NCBI GenBank assembly: GCA_905618915.1
Contig: CAJQTI010000050.1
Span: forward strand, 1-38,287
Source: an uncultured Candidatus Pelagibacter sp.
GTDB lineage: Bacteria > Pseudomonadota > Alphaproteobacteria > Pelagibacterales > Pelagibacteraceae
Direction: 5' to 3'
DNA: 38,287 bases
Shown here: piece after piece, positions 5,192-21,260 of the stretch
Layout: every line of letters begins with the position of its first letter
How positions within the stretch are numbered: the first letter of the stretch is position 1
Notes under the pieces: generated by a model
Database searches by the model: none
What the model was told of the DNA's origin: nothing
The model's input: the letters and a program-made list of their open reading frames with translations, nothing else
Position numbers and translations under genes: made by a program

Positions 5192-6526
5192 CTACTGTCC
5201 ATATAGATAGGCTGGAAGCCACAAAGCAATCTGTGGAAATACTATAATTAAAATTAAACCAATAACTTGAATAACCATAAACTGCATCATTCCATGATAA
5301 ATATCTTTAAGATCCCATTCTGGAACTACACCTTTTAAAAAATAAGCTGATAGTGCAACAGGTGGTGAGAGCCAAGCGGTCTGGAGGTTTACTGCTACAA
5401 GGATTGCAAACCATGTTAAATTAAATCCAAGTGCTTCAACTAATGGCAATATTATTGGCACTATAATCATAACAATTGGTACCCACTCTAAAGGCCATCC
5501 TAAAAGGAAAATCATAACCATAATCATTCCAAGAATTAAGTATCTATTCATCTCTAAACCTAGCAAGAAATCAGTTAGCAACATTGGTGTTCCTAATCTA
5601 GAAAACACTGCTCCAAAAAAGTTTGATGCTGCAACAAGAACCATTATTAAAGCAGAAATTTCTAAAGTTTTAACTAAAGCTTCTTGTAATCTTCCAAATG
5701 TTAACTTTCTATAAGCAATAGCTAAAAGCAAAGAACCCATTGCGCCACAACCAGCTGCTTCTGTTGGTGTAGCAAAGCCGAATAAAATACTTCCTAGTGA
5801 AGCAAAAACTAATGCTGCTGGTGGAACTAAACCAATAAAAAATTCTTTCCAAACAGCCAACATACTAGTGGCTCTTAATTCGACTGGTAGAACTGGTCCT
5901 AAACTTGGATCAATCCAACATCTAATGGTTGTGTAACCAGCGTAAAGCGTTGCCAATAATATTCCTGGAATAATTGCTGCAGCAAATAGATCTGTAACTG
6001 GTATTTCCATTATTGGCCCCATAACAACAAGCATAATGCTTGGTGGAATTAAAATACCTAAGGTCCCTCCAGCTGTAATTGTTCCTGCTGCTAATCTAAC
6101 ATTGTAACCAGATTTGTTCATAGATTTAGCAGCCATTATTCCTAAAATTGTTACTGATGCCCCAACAATTCCTGTTGCTGCTGCAAAAATAACTGAAACA
6201 AATAGTACCGCGTAATATAAAGAGCCTCTTACTTTTGCCAGCATTAATTGAAATGCTGAAAATAATCTTTCCATTAACCCAGCTTGCTCCATCATTATTC
6301 CCATAAAGACAAAGAGTGGAACGGCTGCAAGAGTTTGTTCGGTCATGACCATTGAAAACTGTAAGGTCATTAAATAAAATACCAATTTACCAAATCCTAA
6401 ATACCCAAAGGAAAAACCTAGAAATATTAACGTAAATGATATTGGAAAACCTACAAATATAGAAAATAACATTACTCCTATAAGGATGAAACCTAGAATG
6501 GCTGGATCCATAAATTCAGCTAACAT
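5192..6526 (-). CDS. dctM: TRAP transporter large membrane subunit (DctM)
   Basis: The channel-forming subunit of a tripartite ATP-independent periplasmic transporter, about 444 residues with 12 or more membrane segments. Typical stretches include T-L-A-A-V-P-L-F-V-F-M-G-I-M-M-E, G-I-L-I-P-P-S-I-M-L-V, and F-A-T-P-T-E-A-A-G. The start is set at ATG 6526-6524: it overlaps the dctQ stop as TAATG and is preceded by a strong AGGAGG Shine-Dalgarno that at the same time encodes the last Gly residues of DctQ. An earlier ATG 21 bases upstream would give an odd M-A-R-R-R-R start and would lie ahead of that ribosome-binding site. Confidence 0.93.
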   Translation of the reverse strand: MLAEFMDPAILGFILIGVMLFSIFVGFPISFTLIFLGFSFGYLGFGKLVFYLMTLQFSMVMTEQTLAAVPLFVFMGIMMEQAGLMERLFSAFQLMLAKVRGSLYYAVLFVSVIFAAATGIVGASVTILGIMAAKSMNKSGYNVRLAAGTITAGGTLGILIPPSIMLVVMGPIMEIPVTDLFAAAIIPGILLATLYAGYTTIRCWIDPSLGPVLPVELRATSMLAVWKEFFIGLVPPAALVFASLGSILFGFATPTEAAGCGAMGSLLLAIAYRKLTFGRLQEALVKTLEISALIMVLVAASNFFGAVFSRLGTPMLLTDFLLGLEMNRYLILGMIMVMIFLLGWPLEWVPIVMIIVPIILPLVEALGFNLTWFAILVAVNLQTAWLSPPVALSAYFLKGVVPEWDLKDIYHGMMQFMVIQVIGLILIIVFPQIALWLPAYLYGQ

Positions 6527-13920: not shown

Positions 13921-15071
13921 TGGCGCTTCACTTTAGTAAAGAAGAGTTTGAAAAAAGAAAGTTAAAAACTTTACAATCTATGAAAGAGCAAAATCTTGAT
14001 GCTCTACTAATGTTTAGACAGGAGTCAATGTTCTGGCTTACAGGCTATGACACCTTTGGTTATGTTTTTTTTCAAACTTTAATATTAGATCAAAAAGGAA
14101 ATGTTATTCTTTTGACAAGGGCTCCAGATTTAAGACAAGCACAAAACACCTCAAATATTAAAGATATAAGAATTTGGGTTGATAAAGATCAGTCAAACCC
14201 AACTGAAGATCTTAAAGTTATTTTAAATGATCTTAATTTAAAAGGTAAGAAAGTTGGTATTGAATATGAAGCTTATGGTATGACAGGTCGTAACGCTTTA
14301 AGACTTAATAAATCATTAGAAAGTTACTGTGAAGTAGAAGATCAATCAGAATTAATAACCAAACATAGAGTTATTAAATCCACTGAAGAAATTGTTTACG
14401 TAAAGAAAGCTGCAGAACTTGCAGATAAAGCTCTAGATGAGGCTTGGAAATATACAAAAGCTGGAGCCTCTGAAGCAAAAATTTTAGCAGAAATGCAAAG
14501 AGTAGTTCTTGAAAATGGTGGTGACTATCCAGCTAACGAATATATTATTGGCTCAGGACACAATGCCCTTCTATGCAGATATCAATCTGAAAAGAGAAAT
14601 TTATCAGATACAGACCAATTAAGTATTGAATGGGCTGGTACTTTTAAACATTACCATTCTGCAATGTTTAGAACTATTCCTATTGGAAAGGCTGACCCAA
14701 AACATATTAAAATGCATGAAGCATGTGTTGAAGCTTTAAATAATTGTGCAAAAACTTTGATACCTGGAAAAACAGCAGGAGATGTCTTTGATATTCATGC
14801 TAAAACCTTTGATGATCTTGGTTATAATAAAGCAAGAATGAATGCATGTGGTTATTCTTTAGGCTCAACGTTTTCACCTAATTGGATGGACTGGCCAATG
14901 TTATATACTGGTAATCCTTATAAGATTGTTCCTGGTAATGTCTTCTTCATGCACATGATATTGATGGATTCAGACAATGAATTAGCCATGAATTTAGGAG
15001 AAACCTATCTTGTAACCGAGAATGGTAACGAAAGATTAGGTAAGCAAAAACTTGATTTAGTTGTCTTATAA
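13920..15071 (+). CDS. M24 (Xaa-Pro peptidase / creatinase-fold) protein lacking most metal ligands
   Basis: 383 residues with the creatinase N-terminal domain (about 10-145) and the pita-bread domain (about 160-380). The five metal ligands of M24 peptidases are mostly absent: the first Asp is E237 (S-I-E-W-A-G), the second is A248 (H-S-A-M-F-R-T), the His is Y312 (G-Y-S-L-G) and the first Glu is H345 (F-F-M-H-M); only the last Glu (E361) is kept. This fits the metal-free hydrolase branch that includes creatinase and ectoine hydrolase (DoeA/EutD), not a true aminopeptidase. A doeB-like deacetylase is not seen. It is translationally coupled to the hydratase-like gene. Confidence 0.82.
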   Translation: MALHFSKEEFEKRKLKTLQSMKEQNLDALLMFRQESMFWLTGYDTFGYVFFQTLILDQKGNVILLTRAPDLRQAQNTSNIKDIRIWVDKDQSNPTEDLKVILNDLNLKGKKVGIEYEAYGMTGRNALRLNKSLESYCEVEDQSELITKHRVIKSTEEIVYVKKAAELADKALDEAWKYTKAGASEAKILAEMQRVVLENGGDYPANEYIIGSGHNALLCRYQSEKRNLSDTDQLSIEWAGTFKHYHSAMFRTIPIGKADPKHIKMHEACVEALNNCAKTLIPGKTAGDVFDIHAKTFDDLGYNKARMNACGYSLGSTFSPNWMDWPMLYTGNPYKIVPGNVFFMHMILMDSDNELAMNLGETYLVTENGNERLGKQKLDLVVL

Positions 15072-15102: not shown

Positions 15103-15151
15103 CATATAAAATCCTATAACCCAGAACCACGATCCCTAAAAGTTTTTTCAT
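15103..15151 (-). repeat. Signal-peptide repeat, copy A (vestigial)
   Basis: 49 bases that on the minus strand read ATG then M-K-K-L-L-G-I-V-V-L-G before running into an unrelated tail and a TAG at 15095. By eye it differs from copy C at about 3 of 49 positions. Its ATG overlaps the TGA of the upstream membrane-protein gene as ATGA (15151-15148). The lipobox part of the signal peptide is missing, so it is a remnant, though a short peptide could still be translated. Confidence 0.8.
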
Positions 15152-15567
15152 CTAATATCTTTGAGTCCCTTTAACGTTGAGTAATATATATATATTGTTA
15201 AACCGTTTCTAATAAAATGACCAAGTGTATCTAAATCAAGGCCATTTTTTATTACAAAAGAAAGGTCACCCAAGATAGCAAAAATTATTAATGCTGCTGG
15301 TAATATTGTTGCAGTATTTACAATGACTTTTTTATAAATCTTCAAAATTATAAATGCTGAAAAAAATCCAGCAATAACTCCTGAAATAAAAGAGCTTGTT
15401 ATAATCTTAAAAAAACTAGGAAAGTTCCAGAAGGCAACATAATCATTAAACCAAACAATAAAGTTTCCAATATAGTTTCCACCTACTTGTCCTAATACAG
15501 CTAAAGGAATAAAAACTAATGAAACCAGCAAACTTATGGCGTGATTTGACCAACTAATTTTTTTCAT
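15148..15567 (-). CDS. Small multi-helix membrane protein, unknown function
   Basis: I set the start at ATG 15567, which overlaps the stop of the MGLFD gene upstream as ATGA; a longer frame to 15603 would overlap that gene by 40 bases. The product has 139 residues with about four membrane helices (around residues 10-27, 50-75, 80-105 and 110-130) and an acidic G-D-L-S-F-V-I-K-N-G-L-D-L-D-T-L-G segment. I do not recognise a family. Its TGA overlaps the ATG of signal-peptide repeat A. It is the last intact gene of the minus-strand island run. Confidence 0.6.
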   Translation of the reverse strand: MKKISWSNHAISLLVSLVFIPLAVLGQVGGNYIGNFIVWFNDYVAFWNFPSFFKIITSSFISGVIAGFFSAFIILKIYKKVIVNTATILPAALIIFAILGDLSFVIKNGLDLDTLGHFIRNGLTIYIYYSTLKGLKDIR

Positions 15568-15940: not shown

Positions 15941-16288
15941 TTAACCAAATAAACCTTTTTTTAAACCGTAAGCTTTTCTAAGTTCTCTATTTTCTAATGC
16001 CACTGAAGCAAGAACATAAGATGAAGCAAAAAAGAAATTATCGTACCATTTTTTTTTCTTGAACCATGAATGATATTTATTTCTTTTCATGTATTCGACT
16101 ATTTCATCATATATTTCTTCACAAGAAATAGTTTTTAAATCAATATATCCAGTCATTTCATATCTTCTAATCCAGGAACCAAAGCCATGAAATACTTCGC
16201 CTAAAAGCATTCTAAATGATAATGGAAGTTGAATTATTTCTGCCTCCATATGAGTGTCAAAAAAGTTTTTATCAAAATTATCGATCAA
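15941..16288 (-). CDS. Unknown protein with a frameshifted Lys-rich N-terminus
   Basis: The uninterrupted frame with a usable start codon begins at a TTG (16288) and gives 115 residues (L-P-L-S-F-R-M-L-L-G, F-K-K-K-K-W-Y-D-N, ending G-L-K-K-G-L-F-G). The same frame stays open upstream for about 46 more codons that are very Lys-rich, up to a run of 16 A. Just beyond that run is an ATG (16431-16429) that overlaps the stop of the preceding gene as TAATG, the same coupling used by its neighbours, but one base out of frame. I therefore think the true or ancestral start is 16431 and that the poly-A run is short by one base, or is corrected by slippage. The family is unknown. Confidence 0.55.
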   Translation of the reverse strand: MIDNFDKNFFDTHMEAEIIQLPLSFRMLLGEVFHGFGSWIRRYEMTGYIDLKTISCEEIYDEIVEYMKRNKYHSWFKKKKWYDNFFFASSYVLASVALENRELRKAYGLKKGLFG

Positions 16289-16407
16289 ATGTTGCAGATA
16301 TTCAGAATATGTATTGCTAGATATTTTTTTAAAATGGATACTTTTTGAAACAATTTTTATTTGTTTTTTTGCTTTCTTAGATTTCTTAACTTTTTTAACT
16401 TTTTTAG

Positions 16408-16423
16408 TTTTTTTTTTTTTTTT
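16408..16423 (-). repeat. Homopolymer of 16 A that breaks the coupled start
   Basis: On the minus strand the sequence ATGGTTAT (16431-16424) is followed by A x16 and then CT. With 17 or 14 A the coupled ATG would be in frame with the long Lys-rich extension of the gene ending at 15941. With 16 it reads M-V-I-K-K-K-K-K-N and stops. This is either a sequencing or replication slip, or a site of transcriptional slippage. Confidence 0.8.
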
Positions 16424-16430
16424 ATAACCA

Positions 16431-16610
16431 TTAGTGCAAAACCTTATCTAAAATATTAACAATAACATAACGATGCTGATCATCACTTTCAACATCAAAC
16501 ACTATTTGTGGATCAATATCTCCCTCCACAGCATCTGCCATTAAACTTATATAATCACCTAACTCGTTATCTGTTGCATAATAATCAAATGTTTTTTTAA
16601 AAGTTATCAT
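16431..16610 (-). CDS. Acidic DRVLH-type small protein, paralog 3 of 3
   Basis: 59 codons, start ATG 16610 overlapping the previous gene's stop as TAATG, and its own TAA overlaps the next ATG the same way. The product (M-I-T-F-K-K-T-F-D-Y ...) ends V-I-V-N-I-L-D-K-V-L-H, aligned with the ends of the two preceding genes, and shares the K-T-F start and a central acidic D-P segment. It is the most diverged of the three. No signal peptide or membrane helix. Net charge is clearly negative. The overlapped stop-start pairs on both sides and the conserved end are strong evidence that it is real. Confidence 0.72.
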   Translation of the reverse strand: MITFKKTFDYYATDNELGDYISLMADAVEGDIDPQIVFDVESDDQHRYVIVNILDKVLH

Positions 16611-16783
16611 TAATGTAATACCCTATCCCAAACTTCAATTCTTATAAACTGCCAGCCATCATCTTGCTGAAATTCAAGATCATAGTAATCATCTGGGTCT
16701 AAAGTTTTGAGAACTAAATTCACATATGTGTCTATTCTTTCATGTGAGATTTTACCTCTAAAAGTTTTGACAAAAGTTTTCAT
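16610..16783 (-). CDS. Acidic DRVLH-type small protein, paralog 2 of 3
   Basis: 57 codons, start ATG 16783 overlapping the previous stop as TGATG. The product has G-K-I-S-H near residue 10, L-D-P-D-D-Y at 28-33, and the end I-E-V-W-D-R-V-L-H. Against paralog 1 it aligns without gaps over the full 57 residues (shared G-K-I-S, I-D, L-D-P-D-D, Q-F-I, D-R-V-L-H). It has a likely beta-strand rich C-terminal half (W-Q-F-I-R-I-E-V-W). The family is not known to me. The function is unknown; possibilities include antitoxin, inhibitor or an adaptor for the neighbouring membrane protein. Confidence 0.75.
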   Translation of the reverse strand: MKTFVKTFRGKISHERIDTYVNLVLKTLDPDDYYDLEFQQDDGWQFIRIEVWDRVLH

Positions 16784-16956
16784 CAATGAAGTACTCTATC
16801 TATAACGTTAACACTTATAAATTGATAATCTTCTTGAATATGCCATTCAATATAAACATCATCATCAGGGTCTAATGCTGCTCTAGTTTTATCAACAAAA
16901 TCATCAATTGCTTTGTATGATATTTTTCCTTCAAAGTATTTTTCAATTTTTTTCAT
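16783..16956 (-). CDS. Acidic DRVLH-type small protein, paralog 1 of 3
   Basis: 57 codons, start ATG 16956 overlapping the stop of the membrane-protein gene upstream as TAATG. The product runs M-K-K-I-E-K-Y-F-E-G-K-I-S-Y, then an amphipathic stretch, A-L-D-P-D-D-D-V-Y-I-E-W, and ends Y-Q-F-I-S-V-N-V-I-D-R-V-L-H. It is the best match to paralog 2. Predicted shape from pattern: one helix followed by two or three strands. No cysteine, no signal peptide. The three genes are in direct tandem, so they arose by duplication, and the sequence has diverged well beyond synonymous change, which argues that selection keeps the common end. Confidence 0.75.
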   Translation of the reverse strand: MKKIEKYFEGKISYKAIDDFVDKTRAALDPDDDVYIEWHIQEDYQFISVNVIDRVLH

Positions 16957-17246
16957 TAATCAAAACCTTTATCTAAATCAATTTTAGTAATTAAAAACTT
17001 CCATAGAAGCGCCAATAGAGCAAGTGTTGATGCACCCATAAATATTATAAAGAGTATTGATAGACCAACCTGAATAAAACCTCCAAAAAGACCCAATGAG
17101 TTTGCCCAATCAAAACTATGAACTTCTGTGAAAAAAGAGATGAAACCATCAAGATTTTGATTTTTTGAAATGAAATGATACGCAAAATACAAACTGTTTC
17201 CCCAAAAATATAAAAAAAATGTTTTTGTTATTATATTTATAATCAT
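16956..17246 (-). CDS. Small two-helix membrane protein, unknown function
   Basis: 96 residues from ATG 17246. A hydrophobic stretch at about 5-28 and a longer one at about 55-88 (F-I-Q-V-G-L-S-I-L-F-I-I-F-M-G-A-S-T-L-A-L) flank an acidic, aromatic loop (F-T-E-V-H-S-F-D-W). The tail I-D-L-D-K-G-F-D is acidic. It lies 21 bases after signal-peptide repeat B and its TAA overlaps the start of DRVLH paralog 1, so it heads the DRVLH subset of the run. I do not recognise a family. Confidence 0.65.
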   Translation of the reverse strand: MIINIITKTFFLYFWGNSLYFAYHFISKNQNLDGFISFFTEVHSFDWANSLGLFGGFIQVGLSILFIIFMGASTLALLALLWKFLITKIDLDKGFD

Positions 17247-17267: not shown

Positions 17268-17324
17268 TTAAACATTACCACCTAACAACAAACCCAGAAC
17301 CACGATCCCTAAAATCTTTTTCAT
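17268..17324 (-). repeat. Signal-peptide repeat, copy B (complete 18-codon micro-ORF)
   Basis: On the minus strand, ATG 17324 opens M-K-K-I-L-G-I-V-V-L-G-L-L-L-G-G-N-V then TAA at 17270-17268. This is a lipoprotein-like signal peptide with G-G-N where L-S-G-C would be, and it stops at once. The ATG lies one base after the stop of the DUF4177-like gene. The 34-base core (17291-17324) differs from copy A at 2 positions by eye. Confidence 0.75.
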
Positions 17325-17325
17325 T

Positions 17326-17538
17326 TTAACTTCTCTTTTGAAAATATTCTCTTTTGAAAATATATTTAATACCGTTGTTTGGGCGTGTATCAATCGTAAC
17401 AAGCTCCCACCCTTTTTTTCCATATTGATTTAACATTTTTTCTCTAGCTTCTTCAAAATGTATATGGGGGAAATCACTTTTAGTTAGATCAGGTTCAATC
17501 ACAGCAGCATCTAATATTTTATATTCAAATCTTTTCAT
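17326..17538 (-). CDS. DUF4177-like small protein
   Basis: 70 residues. The family pattern is an initial beta strand (F-E-Y-K-I-L-D-A), a helix, then L-N-Q-Y-G-K-K-G-W-E-L-V-T-I-D and a final Y-I-F-K-R strand; all are visible. DUF4177 proteins are short, widespread in bacteria and have no assigned function. The start ATG overlaps the stop of the HD-domain gene as ATGA (17538-17535), so the two are translationally coupled. It ends one base before the ATG of signal-peptide repeat B. Confidence 0.8.
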   Translation of the reverse strand: MKRFEYKILDAAVIEPDLTKSDFPHIHFEEAREKMLNQYGKKGWELVTIDTRPNNGIKYIFKREYFQKRS

Positions 17539-18452: not shown

Positions 18453-18783
18453 TATCGTCAATTTTAAAACTTATTGGAGTATACTCTTCTTCAAAAGACT
18501 TACCCATATAATTAAAATGTTCATTGTAAGATTTAACACATTCTTTTTTTAAATCCTTAAGTGCAAGAAAAGTTTGACCATCAAGTTTACCTTCAGATCT
18601 GTGAATACTTTGTATTTGATCAAGTATCTCTCTTTTGTTTTTTAACAATGGCATAAGATCTTTTTTCGAACCTTCTGACAGCGCTATTGAATAATGAAGA
18701 AAACCATCACATTGACCCATCATTTTTTTAACTTCTTTATGTAATGTTTTGCTATTACCATAAAAAAAATCAAATAATCCCAT
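18445..18783 (-). CDS. MGLFD-type small protein 2, unknown function
   Basis: 112 residues starting M-G-L-F-D-F-F-Y-G-N-S-K-T, like the gene at 15564-15932. The rest is a charged helical domain with one Cys in M-M-G-Q-C-D-G-F and another in L-K-K-E-C-V-K, ending in an acidic D-D-N-E. No membrane segment. The start codon lies inside the repeat unit shared with copies C and E, so part of its own 5' end is repeat DNA. It lies after the lipoprotein gene and signal-peptide repeat C. Confidence 0.65.
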   Translation of the reverse strand: MGLFDFFYGNSKTLHKEVKKMMGQCDGFLHYSIALSEGSKKDLMPLLKNKREILDQIQSIHRSEGKLDGQTFLALKDLKKECVKSYNEHFNYMGKSFEEEYTPISFKIDDNE

Positions 18784-18829
18784 ATTAAATCCTATAACCC
18801 AGAACCATGATCCCTAAAAGTTTTTTTAT
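18758..18829 (-). repeat. Signal-peptide repeat, copy C, continuing into the MGLFD start
   Basis: About 72 bases. The upstream part is the signal-peptide repeat with its ATG changed to ATA, directly at the TGA of the lipoprotein gene; the downstream part includes the ATG and first codons of MGLFD protein 2. It matches copy E over the whole length with roughly nine in ten bases the same by eye, and matches copy A over 49 bases. Confidence 0.8.
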
Positions 18830-19308
18830 CAAAATCCTAATGGGCAAATTTCTGCAGCACCAATTGTTTTAGTGTTTAAGCTGCCTAATTGATTGTAATA
18901 ACAAATCTTGTTCATTCCTGATCTTACATCAAAACTATAAAAGTTATAAGGCTGTTGGCTTTGAGTAGATCCTGTGGTGCCTGTACCTCCACTTAAAAGA
19001 GATAATCCTAACAGCATTTGATTGAAGCTAGCTTGCTTTTCACTTTCAGTCCATTCTCTAGTGTATACTTTTGTTAATTTATTATTTTCAAACACCTCAT
19101 ATCTATTTGATTGAGATTGCGAACCATCGGGACAGGTATAAACTTTTATACTTCCTTCAGCACTGACAAGCTTTGGTTTTACTAATGAAACTTTTTTACA
19201 TGCAGTGGCATAGTCAGAGAAATTAGTTCCAAGATTAAGAGCACTTTGATTAATCGCACATCCACTTAACAATAAACCCAGAACTATGACTACTAAAATC
19301 CTTTTCAT
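18829..19308 (-). CDS. Lipoprotein, unknown function
   Basis: I take ATG 19308 as start (an ATG 6 bases earlier only adds M-L). The signal peptide M-K-R-I-L-V-V-I-V-L-G-L-L-L-S-G-C has a clear lipobox with C17, so the mature protein (about 143 residues) is lipid-anchored in the cell envelope. It contains three further Cys (in Y-A-T-A-C-K-K, V-Y-T-C-P-D-G-S and the C-terminal pair in K-I-C-Y and E-I-C-P), a G-T-G-T-T-G-S-T linker and a Q-P-Y-N-F-Y-S-F segment. This is the only copy of the island's signal-peptide repeat still fused to a protein. I do not recognise the mature domain. Confidence 0.75.
   Translation of the reverse strand: MKRILVVIVLGLLLSGCAINQSALNLGTNFSDYATACKKVSLVKPKLVSAEGSIKVYTCPDGSQSQSNRYEVFENNKLTKVYTREWTESEKQASFNQMLLGLSLLSGGTGTTGSTQSQQPYNFYSFDVRSGMNKICYYNQLGSLNTKTIGAAEICPLGF
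19275..19308 (-). repeat. Signal-peptide repeat, copy D (functional, in the lipoprotein gene)
   Basis: 34 bases that align with the 34-base core of copy B with about 6 differences. Here the repeat encodes residues 1-11 of an intact lipoprotein signal peptide and is in frame. It is the most diverged copy at DNA level and probably represents the ancestral use of the sequence. Confidence 0.65.
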
Positions 19309-19969: not shown

Positions 19970-20018
19970 TCCTGTATTAAATCCTAACCCAGAACCACGA
20001 TCTTTAAAGGTTTTTCAT
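19950..20018 (-). repeat. Signal-peptide repeat, copy E, with a ghost MGLFD start
   Basis: 69 bases homologous to copy C including the region of the MGLFD start, which is ruined here (ATG changed, giving T-G-L-F-V-F-F-Y-G-N). The signal-peptide part is frameshifted and stops after M-K-N-L. Its ATG (20018-20016) overlaps the stop of the upstream 50-residue gene as TAATG. The distal end overlaps the plus-strand gene ending at 19969. Confidence 0.78.
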
Positions 20019-20170
20019 TAATCTATAATCCCTGCTAAATTTTTAGCAGCCTTTTTTTTGGATCCTGCAGTTAATCCCTTGACATAGGCCGTTGCTATTC
20101 TTTCTGGATTTTTAATATTTCTTTTTTTGAATTTTTTTAATAAATCTTTGTAGTTAGGTTTTCTAGGCAT
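20018..20170 (-). CDS. 50-residue basic small protein, unknown function
   Basis: ATG 20170 overlaps the stop of the upstream membrane-protein gene as TAATG. The product, M-P-R-K-P-N-Y-K-D-L-L-K-K-F-K-K-R followed by A-T-A-Y-V-K-G-L-T-A-G-S-K-K-K-A-A, is strongly basic and helical with no membrane segment. Its TAA overlaps the ATG of repeat copy E. Nucleic-acid binding would suit the charge but is a guess. Confidence 0.6.
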   Translation of the reverse strand: MPRKPNYKDLLKKFKKRNIKNPERIATAYVKGLTAGSKKKAAKNLAGIID

Positions 20171-20832: not shown

Positions 20833-21030
20833 ATGTCTTGGTCCAGAGGTCACTCATCACTTACAGAAAATTCCACAACACCTGTTGTTGATCGCTGCAT
20901 TAATTGCGGAGATCATGAGGAGGTTCAAACTACAATTACAATGGAGTTTGGAGAGGGCAATTACAACACAGGACCTATTTGTAGGAGGTGTTATTCAAGC
21001 TGCAAAGGCCCAAGGATCGCTGAATTCTAA
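20833..21030 (+). CDS. 65-residue zinc-ribbon-like protein
   Basis: Two metal-binding knuckles are visible: C22-x-x-C25 (C-I-N-C-G-D) and C50-x-x-C53 (C-R-R-C), with an extra C57. The segment between them (V-Q-T-T-I-T-M-E-F-G-E-G) suits the beta hairpin of a zinc ribbon. Such small proteins bind nucleic acid or act as adaptors; partner and role cannot be told here. It stands alone, with 91 bases upstream and 53 downstream before the next small gene. Confidence 0.6.
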   Translation: MSWSRGHSSLTENSTTPVVDRCINCGDHEEVQTTITMEFGEGNYNTGPICRRCYSSCKGPRIAEF

Positions 21031-21083
21031 CTAGCGACTATCCTGCATATAGCCACTCAATTTAAGATTTAGTAGAGTTTATA

Positions 21084-21260
21084 ATGGCAACATTAGATGG
21101 AATTATTGAACCAATATATTTTTTGATTACCTCAATATCATTTATATTATTAAGTGTAATCCAATATAAAAAATTTGGGAAAACCAGGGAAACAAAATAT
21201 CTCGCAGGTTTGTCAATTTTTTTCTTATGTAGTTACATTGCTATAATTTTAAAAAATTAG
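21084..21260 (+). CDS. 58-residue two-helix membrane protein
   Basis: ATG 21084 to TAG 21258-21260. Helix 1 is about residues 7-27 and helix 2 about 40-56, with a basic loop K-K-F-G-K-T-R-E-T-K-Y between them. No recognised family. A possible weak promoter or ribosome site (AGAG) lies 8 bases upstream. It is probably the last island gene before the conserved tesA cluster. Confidence 0.5.
   Translation: MATLDGIIEPIYFLITSISFILLSVIQYKKFGKTRETKYLAGLSIFFLCSYIAIILKN

What the first reader, a model, noticed from the sequence alone, without database searches (positions are those of the whole stretch)
16431..16956. Three tandem small paralogs ending in D-R/K-V-L-H, joined by overlapping stops and starts
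The sequence shows three consecutive genes of 57, 57 and 59 codons whose products align end to end (G-K-I-S near residue 11, L-D-P-D-D around 28, Q-F-I and D-R-V-L-H at the end for the first two; D-K-V-L-H in the third), with TAATG or TGATG at every junction. I know of no family with this end. Tandem divergence with a fixed C-terminal motif suggests that each paralog binds a different partner through its body while a common partner or protease reads the tail. They lie after a two-helix membrane protein and before a Lys-rich protein, in an accessory island, so antitoxin, inhibitor or immunity roles are open. This is the strongest candidate here for an undescribed system.
Basis: partly seen in the sequence, partly recalled or inferred. 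Interest (0 to 1): 0.72.

Follow-up and report, generated by a model that had tools for sequence, protein, structure and literature searches.

The report
Small SAR11 island cargo protein family
Three tiny neighbouring genes in an ocean SAR11 bacterium belong to a real, so far unnamed protein family that turns up in very small DNA islands inserted mostly at transfer-RNA genes; what the proteins do is still unknown.

Summary
Three overlapping minus-strand genes (57, 57, 59 codons; 16431-16956) encode homologous proteins ending D-[RK]-V-L-H. Pfam, NCBIfam, PHROGs and PADLOC hold no convincing match. I collected 41 genes in 36 non-redundant loci; 18 of 399 genomes of the genus have one. Selection is purifying (pooled dN/dS 0.09). 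Both subfamilies are predicted as beta-alpha-beta-beta; the most conserved stretches are the DPDD loop and the C-terminal tail.

In 25 of 36 loci the gene lies between direct repeats 0.8-4.3 kb apart, against 4.9% of control positions. In 20 of these the repeat is a piece of a tRNA or tmRNA gene. A 20.6-kb integrase-bearing element carries three more copies. So the genes are recurrent cargo of small att-type islands in which no integrase was recognised: a known kind of island, an undescribed cargo family. No partner gene is constant, which speaks against a toxin-antitoxin pair. The window trio are three older lineages brought together, not a recent duplication. Function: probably phage-conflict cargo, unproven.

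The parts
16783..16956 (-). Family gene 1 (57 aa, ends IDRVLH); subfamily A
   Evidence: relative in G721 at 97.7% DNA identity
16610..16783 (-). Family gene 2 (57 aa, ends WDRVLH); subfamily A
   Evidence: closest L030, 91.4% DNA identity
16431..16610 (-). Family gene 3 (59 aa, ends LDKVLH); subfamily B
   Evidence: found by a profile trained without subfamily B
16956..17246 (-). 96-aa protein directly upstream, TAATG junction; hydrophobic stretches by eye; not a recurrent neighbour of the family
15941..16430 (-). Lys-rich frame after gene 3; lacks an in-frame ATG near its start; 16-base homopolymer at 16408-16423
15103..15155 (-). D1 repeat copy 1, left edge of the island, shortly after the gene ending at 15071 (an M24-type peptidase by recall, not scanned)
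17276..17328 (-). D1 repeat copy 2; with copy 1 it brackets the trio
18781..18833 (-). D1 repeat copy 3
19971..20023 (-). D1 repeat copy 4 (the most diverged), right part of the island

Best explanation
The three genes are members of one family of 57-61-residue proteins (here called DxVLH) that SAR11 bacteria carry as exchangeable cargo in very small genomic islands. SHOWN: the family is conserved as protein, is patchy, and in 25 of 36 loci lies between two direct repeats, mostly pieces of a tRNA or tmRNA gene, otherwise of one end of a small protein gene or of the D1 repeat. Such repeats are the scar that a site-specific integrase leaves at its attachment site. The bracketed stretches are 0.8-4.3 kb, hold a few small genes, and no integrase was recognised in them; an integrase-bearing 20.6-kb element also carries three copies. 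INFERRED: the islands move by an integrase supplied in trans or lost after insertion, and genes are swapped between islands roughly one reading frame at a time. INFERRED, weaker: the protein is a small, perhaps dimeric beta-alpha-beta-beta protein acting on its own on a phage or host component, with the DPDD loop and the D-[RK]-V-L-[HN] tail, which the predicted topology puts at the same end of the sheet, as the shared contact face while the rest varies; several paralogs in one island would widen the range of targets.
For: Homology beyond chance. Purifying selection, pooled dN/dS 0.09 over 94 non-independent pairs. 18 of 399 genus genomes. Brackets in 26 of 36 loci, 25 after setting aside L062, against 139 of 2818 control positions. 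The 25 repeats: tRNA-Thr 5, tRNA-Met 8, tRNA-Ser 2, tRNA-Leu 1, tRNA-Val 1, tmRNA 3, 75-aa gene 3, D1 2 (the 75-aa assignment). No integrase among 80 cargo proteins with Pfam, none among the 25 shown of 52 PHROG families, and no match to the G721 integrase better than E 0.12. 129-bp exact terminal repeats of G721, with integrase, primase-helicase, ssDNA-binding protein and RusA-like resolvase. DNA identity of gene pairs often falls to background within 25 bp outside the ORF. Same predicted fold for both subfamilies. The most conserved 5-column windows are the DPDD loop and the tail. Nuclease and defence-model matches among the co-cargo.
Against: 11 of 36 loci show no credible bracket (some are short contigs or only about 3 kb were held; G721 is one of them, its own repeats lie beyond the 9-kb limit). 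The window's own island has no tRNA; its bracket is the D1 repeat, whose role as an attachment site is only inferred, and D1 also encodes the start of longer proteins. No excision or transfer was seen. ORF-exact homology limits may only mean that neighbours abut and broken ORFs are selected out, and several pairs do share a flank. Nothing measures function; no fold match is specific (best Z 5.9, many designed proteins). The control positions lie more than 3 kb away, mostly in core genes, and the 36 loci are not independent. The defence-model matches have no control set.
Confidence: 0.62

Rival explanations
1. Antitoxin, inhibitor or immunity proteins paired with a neighbouring toxin (the 96-residue or the Lys-rich neighbour in the window).
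For: Small size, tight overlap with neighbours, tandem copies, island setting.
Against: No constant partner: the most frequent accessory neighbour (a 62-aa METWQ protein and its relatives) is near 6 of 36 loci, and the 96-aa and Lys-rich neighbours are not among the recurrent families listed. The near-identical gene 1 in G721 has different neighbours on both sides.
Confidence: 0.1
2. The tail is conserved mainly because its codons carry the ribosome-binding site for the next gene (translational coupling), not because a partner reads it.
For: AGG makes up 14 of 30 tail Arg codons against 4 of 99 Arg codons elsewhere in the same genes and 9.1% of 3421 in longer genes (Fisher p 1.3e-7 for the first comparison, rows not independent). 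The tail Leu avoids TTA: 7 of 41 against 54% in longer genes. 23 of 41 genes overlap the next ORF by one base, against 83 of 267 background pairs with 1- or 4-base overlap.
Against: Leu is kept in 41 of 41 with five different codons and the last residue is only His or Asn, through CAT, CAC and AAT. Most tail residues are kept also in genes whose next same-strand ORF is 19 to 1167 bases away or not in the stretch.
Confidence: 0.2
3. The protein acts in the mobility or maintenance of the islands themselves (for example an excision or replication accessory factor) instead of being passenger cargo.
For: It recurs in islands at eight kinds of repeat and in the integrase-bearing element three times.
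Against: 381 of 399 genus genomes have no match, and in L033 a unit between two tRNA-Ser pieces (5364-6446) holds no family gene. Only weak excisionase-type PHROG matches, best E 0.063 in 2 of 28.
Confidence: 0.1
4. A small metal- or ligand-binding protein: the D-P-D-D loop next to a terminal His/Asn forms a site.
For: Profile match of positions 3-38, which include the loop, to calcium-binding EF-hand chains, E 3e-4.
Against: The Gly and closing Glu of a canonical loop (recalled) are missing by eye; the predicted fold is beta-alpha-beta-beta; Pfam EF-hand_7 matches only 2 of 28 members, best E 0.037.
Confidence: 0.12

Closest known systems
Gene cassettes inserted at tRNAs in additive flexible genomic islands (Ca. 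Actinomarinales, PMC7771536; tRNA-Lys repeats in Methylophilaceae, PMC10872708; passages read)
   Same: [quoted passage not shown] for Methylophilaceae mostly proteins of unknown function.
   Different: Here in SAR11, also at tmRNA and at an end of a protein gene, with repeats of either the 5' or the 3' part of the tRNA; carries the DxVLH family.
Tycheposons (Prochlorococcus and others; seen only through passages of PMC10872708)
   Same: tRNA-associated elements with a tyrosine recombinase and cargo; G721 resembles them loosely.
   Different: The DxVLH islands are 0.8-4.3 kb with no recognised recombinase; tycheposons are given there as 4-200 kbp. No tRNA was found in G721.
SAR11 polymorphic gene indels and hypervariable regions (PMC2217521, passages read)
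   Same: Variable genes in SAR11 genomes, some shown to be under purifying selection.
   Different: In the passages seen, no such family is named; attC sites were not found there, and tRNA-fragment brackets of small units are not described.
DUF4177 (PF13783), present next door at 17326-17538
   Same: Small protein in the same island; a similar order of elements by eye.
   Different: No DUF4177 match of 28 members at E 0.1; profile comparison with the single window DUF4177 protein gives nothing.

Membership tests
tRNA-targeted cassette of an additive flexible genomic island | Direct repeat of part of a tRNA/tmRNA gene at the far end of the insert | tested here: met
   20 of 36 loci (L056 only by sequence identity to the tmRNA repeats). 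Not met for the window's own island, which has D1 repeats instead
tRNA-targeted cassette of an additive flexible genomic island | Gene content differs between strains at the same site | tested here: met
   tRNA-Thr site: five loci with different cargo; L028 has tRNA-Thr without a repeat copy found
Tycheposon / phage satellite | Own site-specific recombinase and terminal repeats | tested here: inconclusive
   G721: integrase E 4e-14 and 129-bp repeats. Small islands: repeats yes, integrase not recognised in 80 of 84 cargo ORFs
Phage satellite | Dependence on a helper phage for packaging | not testable with these tools
   No structural gene among the 29 of 36 G721 ORFs scanned with PHROGs; dependence itself cannot be tested
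Toxin-antitoxin module | Conserved adjacent partner gene | tested here: not met
   no partner constant across 36 loci (ORFs of 40 aa or more within 3 kb)
DUF4177 | Match to PF13783 | tested here: not met
EF-hand protein | Paired helix-loop-helix with canonical loop | tested here: not met
   predicted beta-alpha-beta-beta; Pfam EF-hand_7 in 2 of 28, best E 0.037; against this, the PDB profile match
Cas2 | Cas2 profile match and cas neighbours | tested here: inconclusive
   Cas2b model in 4 of 32 members, best E 0.0031; no cas gene noticed among the recurrent neighbour families
Integron gene cassette | attC sites and integron integrase | not tested
   no attC search was run

The most novel reading that the evidence does not exclude
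DxVLH proteins are a SAR11-specific class of phage-conflict effectors that all engage one conserved host or phage component through a face made of the DPDD loop and the D-[RK]-V-L-[HN] tail. Cells combine several lineages in one operon, and the genes spread as reading-frame-exact units between integrase-less mini-islands at many attachment sites.
Probability: 0.18. Interest if true: 0.68.

Novelty: new member of a known kind. Interest (0 to 1): 0.46.

Why it matters
SAR11 bacteria are among the most abundant in the ocean, and many of their flexible genes have no known function. This gives a bounded family with a fixed motif, a predicted fold and a defined mobile setting. One copy (L025) appears to lie in a cultured strain: the contig of G035 has 1,456,888 bases, the length given for HTCC7211 in a table of PMC7771536; the identity is inferred from length alone. 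It also shows very small att-type islands at tRNA, tmRNA and a protein-gene end as a recurrent place where SAR11 carries tiny accessory genes.

Tried and rejected
Known-family searches: Pfam, PHROGs, NCBIfam and PADLOC gave only weak, scattered matches (best E 0.0031, Cas2b, in 4 of 32 members). The PDB sequence search gave EF-hand chains at E 3e-4, judged a loop-composition match. Foldseek had no match at E 0.001; the second look gave Z up to 5.9, to designed proteins, MinE and others, as a common small fold would. No dodecin, MinE or ferredoxin relationship is claimed.

Phages: tblastn with two members against 50,697 phage records gave, for one, four partial matches at E 0.1 to clamp-loader genes, read as chance, and for the other none. 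Three scans of viral contigs gave one record, G721, or none.

Rows dropped: 11 of the 21 genomes had matches at E 0.007-0.009 inside ORFs of about 270-320 aa (L013-L023). The three translations printed look like methyltransferases by eye; the family profile listed 6 of them, none above its inclusion threshold. L075 (20-residue match) and L095 (E 2.7e-4) were not followed up. L062 is bracketed only by a 25-bp match inside two coding genes and was set aside. L063 is a truncated copy, kept as a locus but not among the 41 genes. Four of 84 cargo ORFs were left out of the 80 aligned.

Idea of a fixed recombination sequence at the TAATG junctions: 5' junctions differ between loci, so rejected. Idea that homology limits at ORF edges prove a new transfer mechanism: not claimed, because abutting genes and selection give the same picture. 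In one search the ends of 112 selected matches lie within 5 bp of an ORF edge in 54.2%, against 2.2% of random points, but the matches are not independent and include the family genes.

A DUF4177 relationship was tested and not found; only 1 of 59 genus genomes, the window's own, has a DUF4177 match, so no DUF4177 profile could be built.

Paper searches for the islands and the family; no title or abstract start listed there is on this family. That is a statement about those listings in that library only. Passages were read in PMC2217521, PMC10872708, PMC7318151, PMC7771536 and PMC8430335; PMC10803314 was seen in a listing only.

Full report
1. Check. Paralogs 1 and 2 are 46% identical over all 57 residues. 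Paralog 3 is too distant for a pairwise claim, so I trained a profile on the 28 genes of 57 residues only. It finds paralog 3 at E 4e-8 and all 13 longer test members at 4e-5 or better, while the best ORF that is not a family gene, in a set of 1375 that includes the family's own, scores E 0.075. The overlaps themselves are ordinary for these genomes: 83 of 267 other close same-strand pairs overlap by 1 or 4 bases.

2. The family. With paralog 1, 21 of 397 genomes of the family match at E 0.01, of which 11 are weak hits inside longer ORFs and were dropped. With profiles: 18 of 399 in the genus, 12 of 397 in the order, 1 of 142 in the class, the window's own, and 10 of 247 in the family again. 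In all of these the listed matches lie in the window's taxonomic family. A scan of GTDB genomes with one member gave 15 loci, titled Pelagibacteraceae or Candidatus Pelagibacter; the contig lengths of eight of them equal those of loci already held, which is how the unnamed family is identified. After removing those eight I worked with 36 loci (one of them the IMG/VR contig) and 41 genes, plus one truncated copy (L063). The members fall into 57-residue and 59-residue types, with two more distant ones of 59 and 61 residues; L073 has a further 57-residue neighbour with a similar start and a different end. The 94 closer same-length pairs give pooled dN/dS 0.09; the pairs are not independent.

3. 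Anatomy. AlphaFold2 gives beta-alpha-beta-beta for paralog 1 (mean pLDDT 81.8) and, run separately, for paralog 3 (82.3). Confidence drops at the last residues in both. Among 41 genes the second-last residue is always Leu, the last is His in 30 and Asn in 11, Asp is kept in 37, Arg in 30 and Val in 35. Mean column entropy is 0.72 bits in the last five columns and 1.68 in the others; the only other five-column window at or below 0.95 is the DPDD loop. The invariant Leu uses five codons, so the protein is under selection there. Some constraint is also on the RNA: AGG is 14 of 30 tail Arg codons but 4 of 99 elsewhere in the same genes, and TTA is only 7 of 41 tail Leu codons against 54% in longer genes, as a ribosome-binding site for the next gene might cause.

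4. Setting. I compared every locus with itself for direct repeats of at least 25 bp and 85% identity, 300-9000 bp apart. In 26 of 36 loci such a pair brackets the family gene or genes; one (L062) is a weak match inside coding genes, leaving 25. Random positions in the same loci more than 3 kb away are bracketed in 139 of 2818 cases. The 25 repeats are pieces of tRNA-Thr (L029, L057, L058, L060, L061), tRNA-Ser (L033, L073), tRNA-Met (L032, L055, L064, L065, L077, L081, L082, L090), tRNA-Leu (L028), tRNA-Val (L080), tmRNA (L027, L071, and L056 by sequence identity to these), one end of a 75-residue protein gene (L072, L088, and L025 by alignment to L072) and the D1 repeat (window, L030). Some repeats are the 3' part of the tRNA and some the 5' part, both reaching the region of the anticodon loop. 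L033 has three partial copies besides the intact tRNA-Ser; L061, L065 and L090 have two each, as if units were stacked. Bracketed stretches measure 760 to 4256 bp, median 1668. Of their 84 other ORFs of 45 aa or more, 80 were scanned: no integrase with Pfam, none among the 25 PHROG families shown of 52 found, and no match to the G721 integrase better than E 0.12. Pfam alone would not settle this, since it also misses the G721 integrase.

5. A larger carrier. The one viral-contig hit, IMGVR_UViG_3300025425_002733 (21,814 bp, here G721), holds three family genes in the order 1, 3, 2 with other genes between them. It has exact 129-bp repeats at 366-494 and 20980-21108, a 20,614-bp unit. The right repeat covers the other end of the same 75-residue gene type that lies near the family genes of L052, L072, L087 and L088 (by eye). 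G721 encodes an integrase, a primase-helicase, an ssDNA-binding protein, a RusA-like resolvase and a restriction-helicase protein. No structural gene was found in the 29 of 36 listed ORFs scanned with PHROGs. It is best read as an integrated mobile element, possibly satellite-like, in a SAR11 chromosome.

6. The window's own island. ARAGORN finds no tRNA in the window. After the gene ending at 15071 there are four same-strand copies of a 53-base repeat, D1, at 15103, 17276, 18781 and 19971; the genome, as held (60% complete), has one further match. Copies 1 and 2 bracket the trio. In L030, at the same chromosomal spot by its neighbours, two D1 copies bracket the relative of gene 2. D1 encodes the start MKKLLGIVVLG, shared at DNA level by otherwise different small genes in other islands. 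Of 59 genus genomes searched, 20 have a match; in six of them two copies lie 1.3-2.1 kb apart, in one 161 bp apart. That D1 is an attachment site is a guess.

7. Movement of single genes. Gene 1 and its copy in G721 are 97.7% identical in DNA, yet identity is 0.32 and 0.36 in the first 25 bases on either side. Similar limits hold for L057_B/L060, L025/L054 and others, while some pairs share one flank (L061/L062, L055/L081, L053/L054, L054/L077). The genes are thus reshuffled nearly one ORF at a time. Since neighbours abut, selection against broken ORFs would give the same limits, so no special mechanism is claimed.

8. Function. No neighbour family recurs in more than 6 of 36 loci; the commonest are genes shared by loci at the same site and a 62-residue protein. 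This speaks against an obligate toxin-antitoxin or toxin-immunity pair. Of 80 co-cargo proteins a few match nuclease-type Pfam families (T5orf172 2, SNase 2, HNH 1) and one WYL, several PADLOC models of known or candidate defence proteins, and PHROG nucleases. No control set was run, so this is a hint that the cargo includes phage-conflict genes, no more. I judge a stand-alone role in phage conflict the most likely function, at roughly one in three.

9. Known or new. Cassettes at tRNA genes with tell-tale tRNA-fragment repeats are described for Ca. Actinomarinales (PMC7771536) and, as additive islands, for Methylophilaceae (PMC10872708); in both I read passages only. SAR11 gene indels under purifying selection are described in PMC2217521 (passages). 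So the island type is known in kind. No title or abstract start in the listings is on this protein family. Verdict: an undescribed cargo family in a known kind of island.

Noticed in passing
window 15103-15155, 17276-17328, 18781-18833, 19971-20023: D1: four same-strand copies of a 53-base repeat with a GC-rich core, encoding MKKLLGIVVLG or a decayed form; pairs of copies 1.3-2.1 kb apart in six other genus genomes. Possible attachment site or recombination anchor.
   Followed up: partly
window 16408-16423: 16-base homopolymer right after gene 3; the Lys-rich frame beyond it has no in-frame ATG near its start, and the ATG at 16431 is in another frame: slippage, sequencing error or a dead gene.
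   Followed up: partly
L069 and L070 (IMGVR_UViG_3300025425_002733): A 20.6-kb integrated element with 129-bp terminal repeats, integrase and phage-type replication genes, no structural gene in 29 of 36 ORFs scanned, filed as viral.
   Followed up: partly
L033:3609-8689: An intact tRNA-Ser followed by three partial copies (67 bp each), apparently stacked units; the last two spacings are about 1.0 and 2.2 kb.
   Followed up: no
L073:1687-1860: A second, more divergent 57-residue neighbour (starts MTIIEKYFDIK, ends FDEKIS), perhaps another branch of the family.
   Followed up: no
window 17326-17538: A DUF4177 protein (E 4e-7) with no match in the other 58 genus genomes searched.
   Followed up: partly
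L029, L057, L058, L060, L061: About 100 bp of non-coding DNA next to the tRNA-Thr fragment is conserved among islands with different cargo, as integrase arm sites would be.
   Followed up: no
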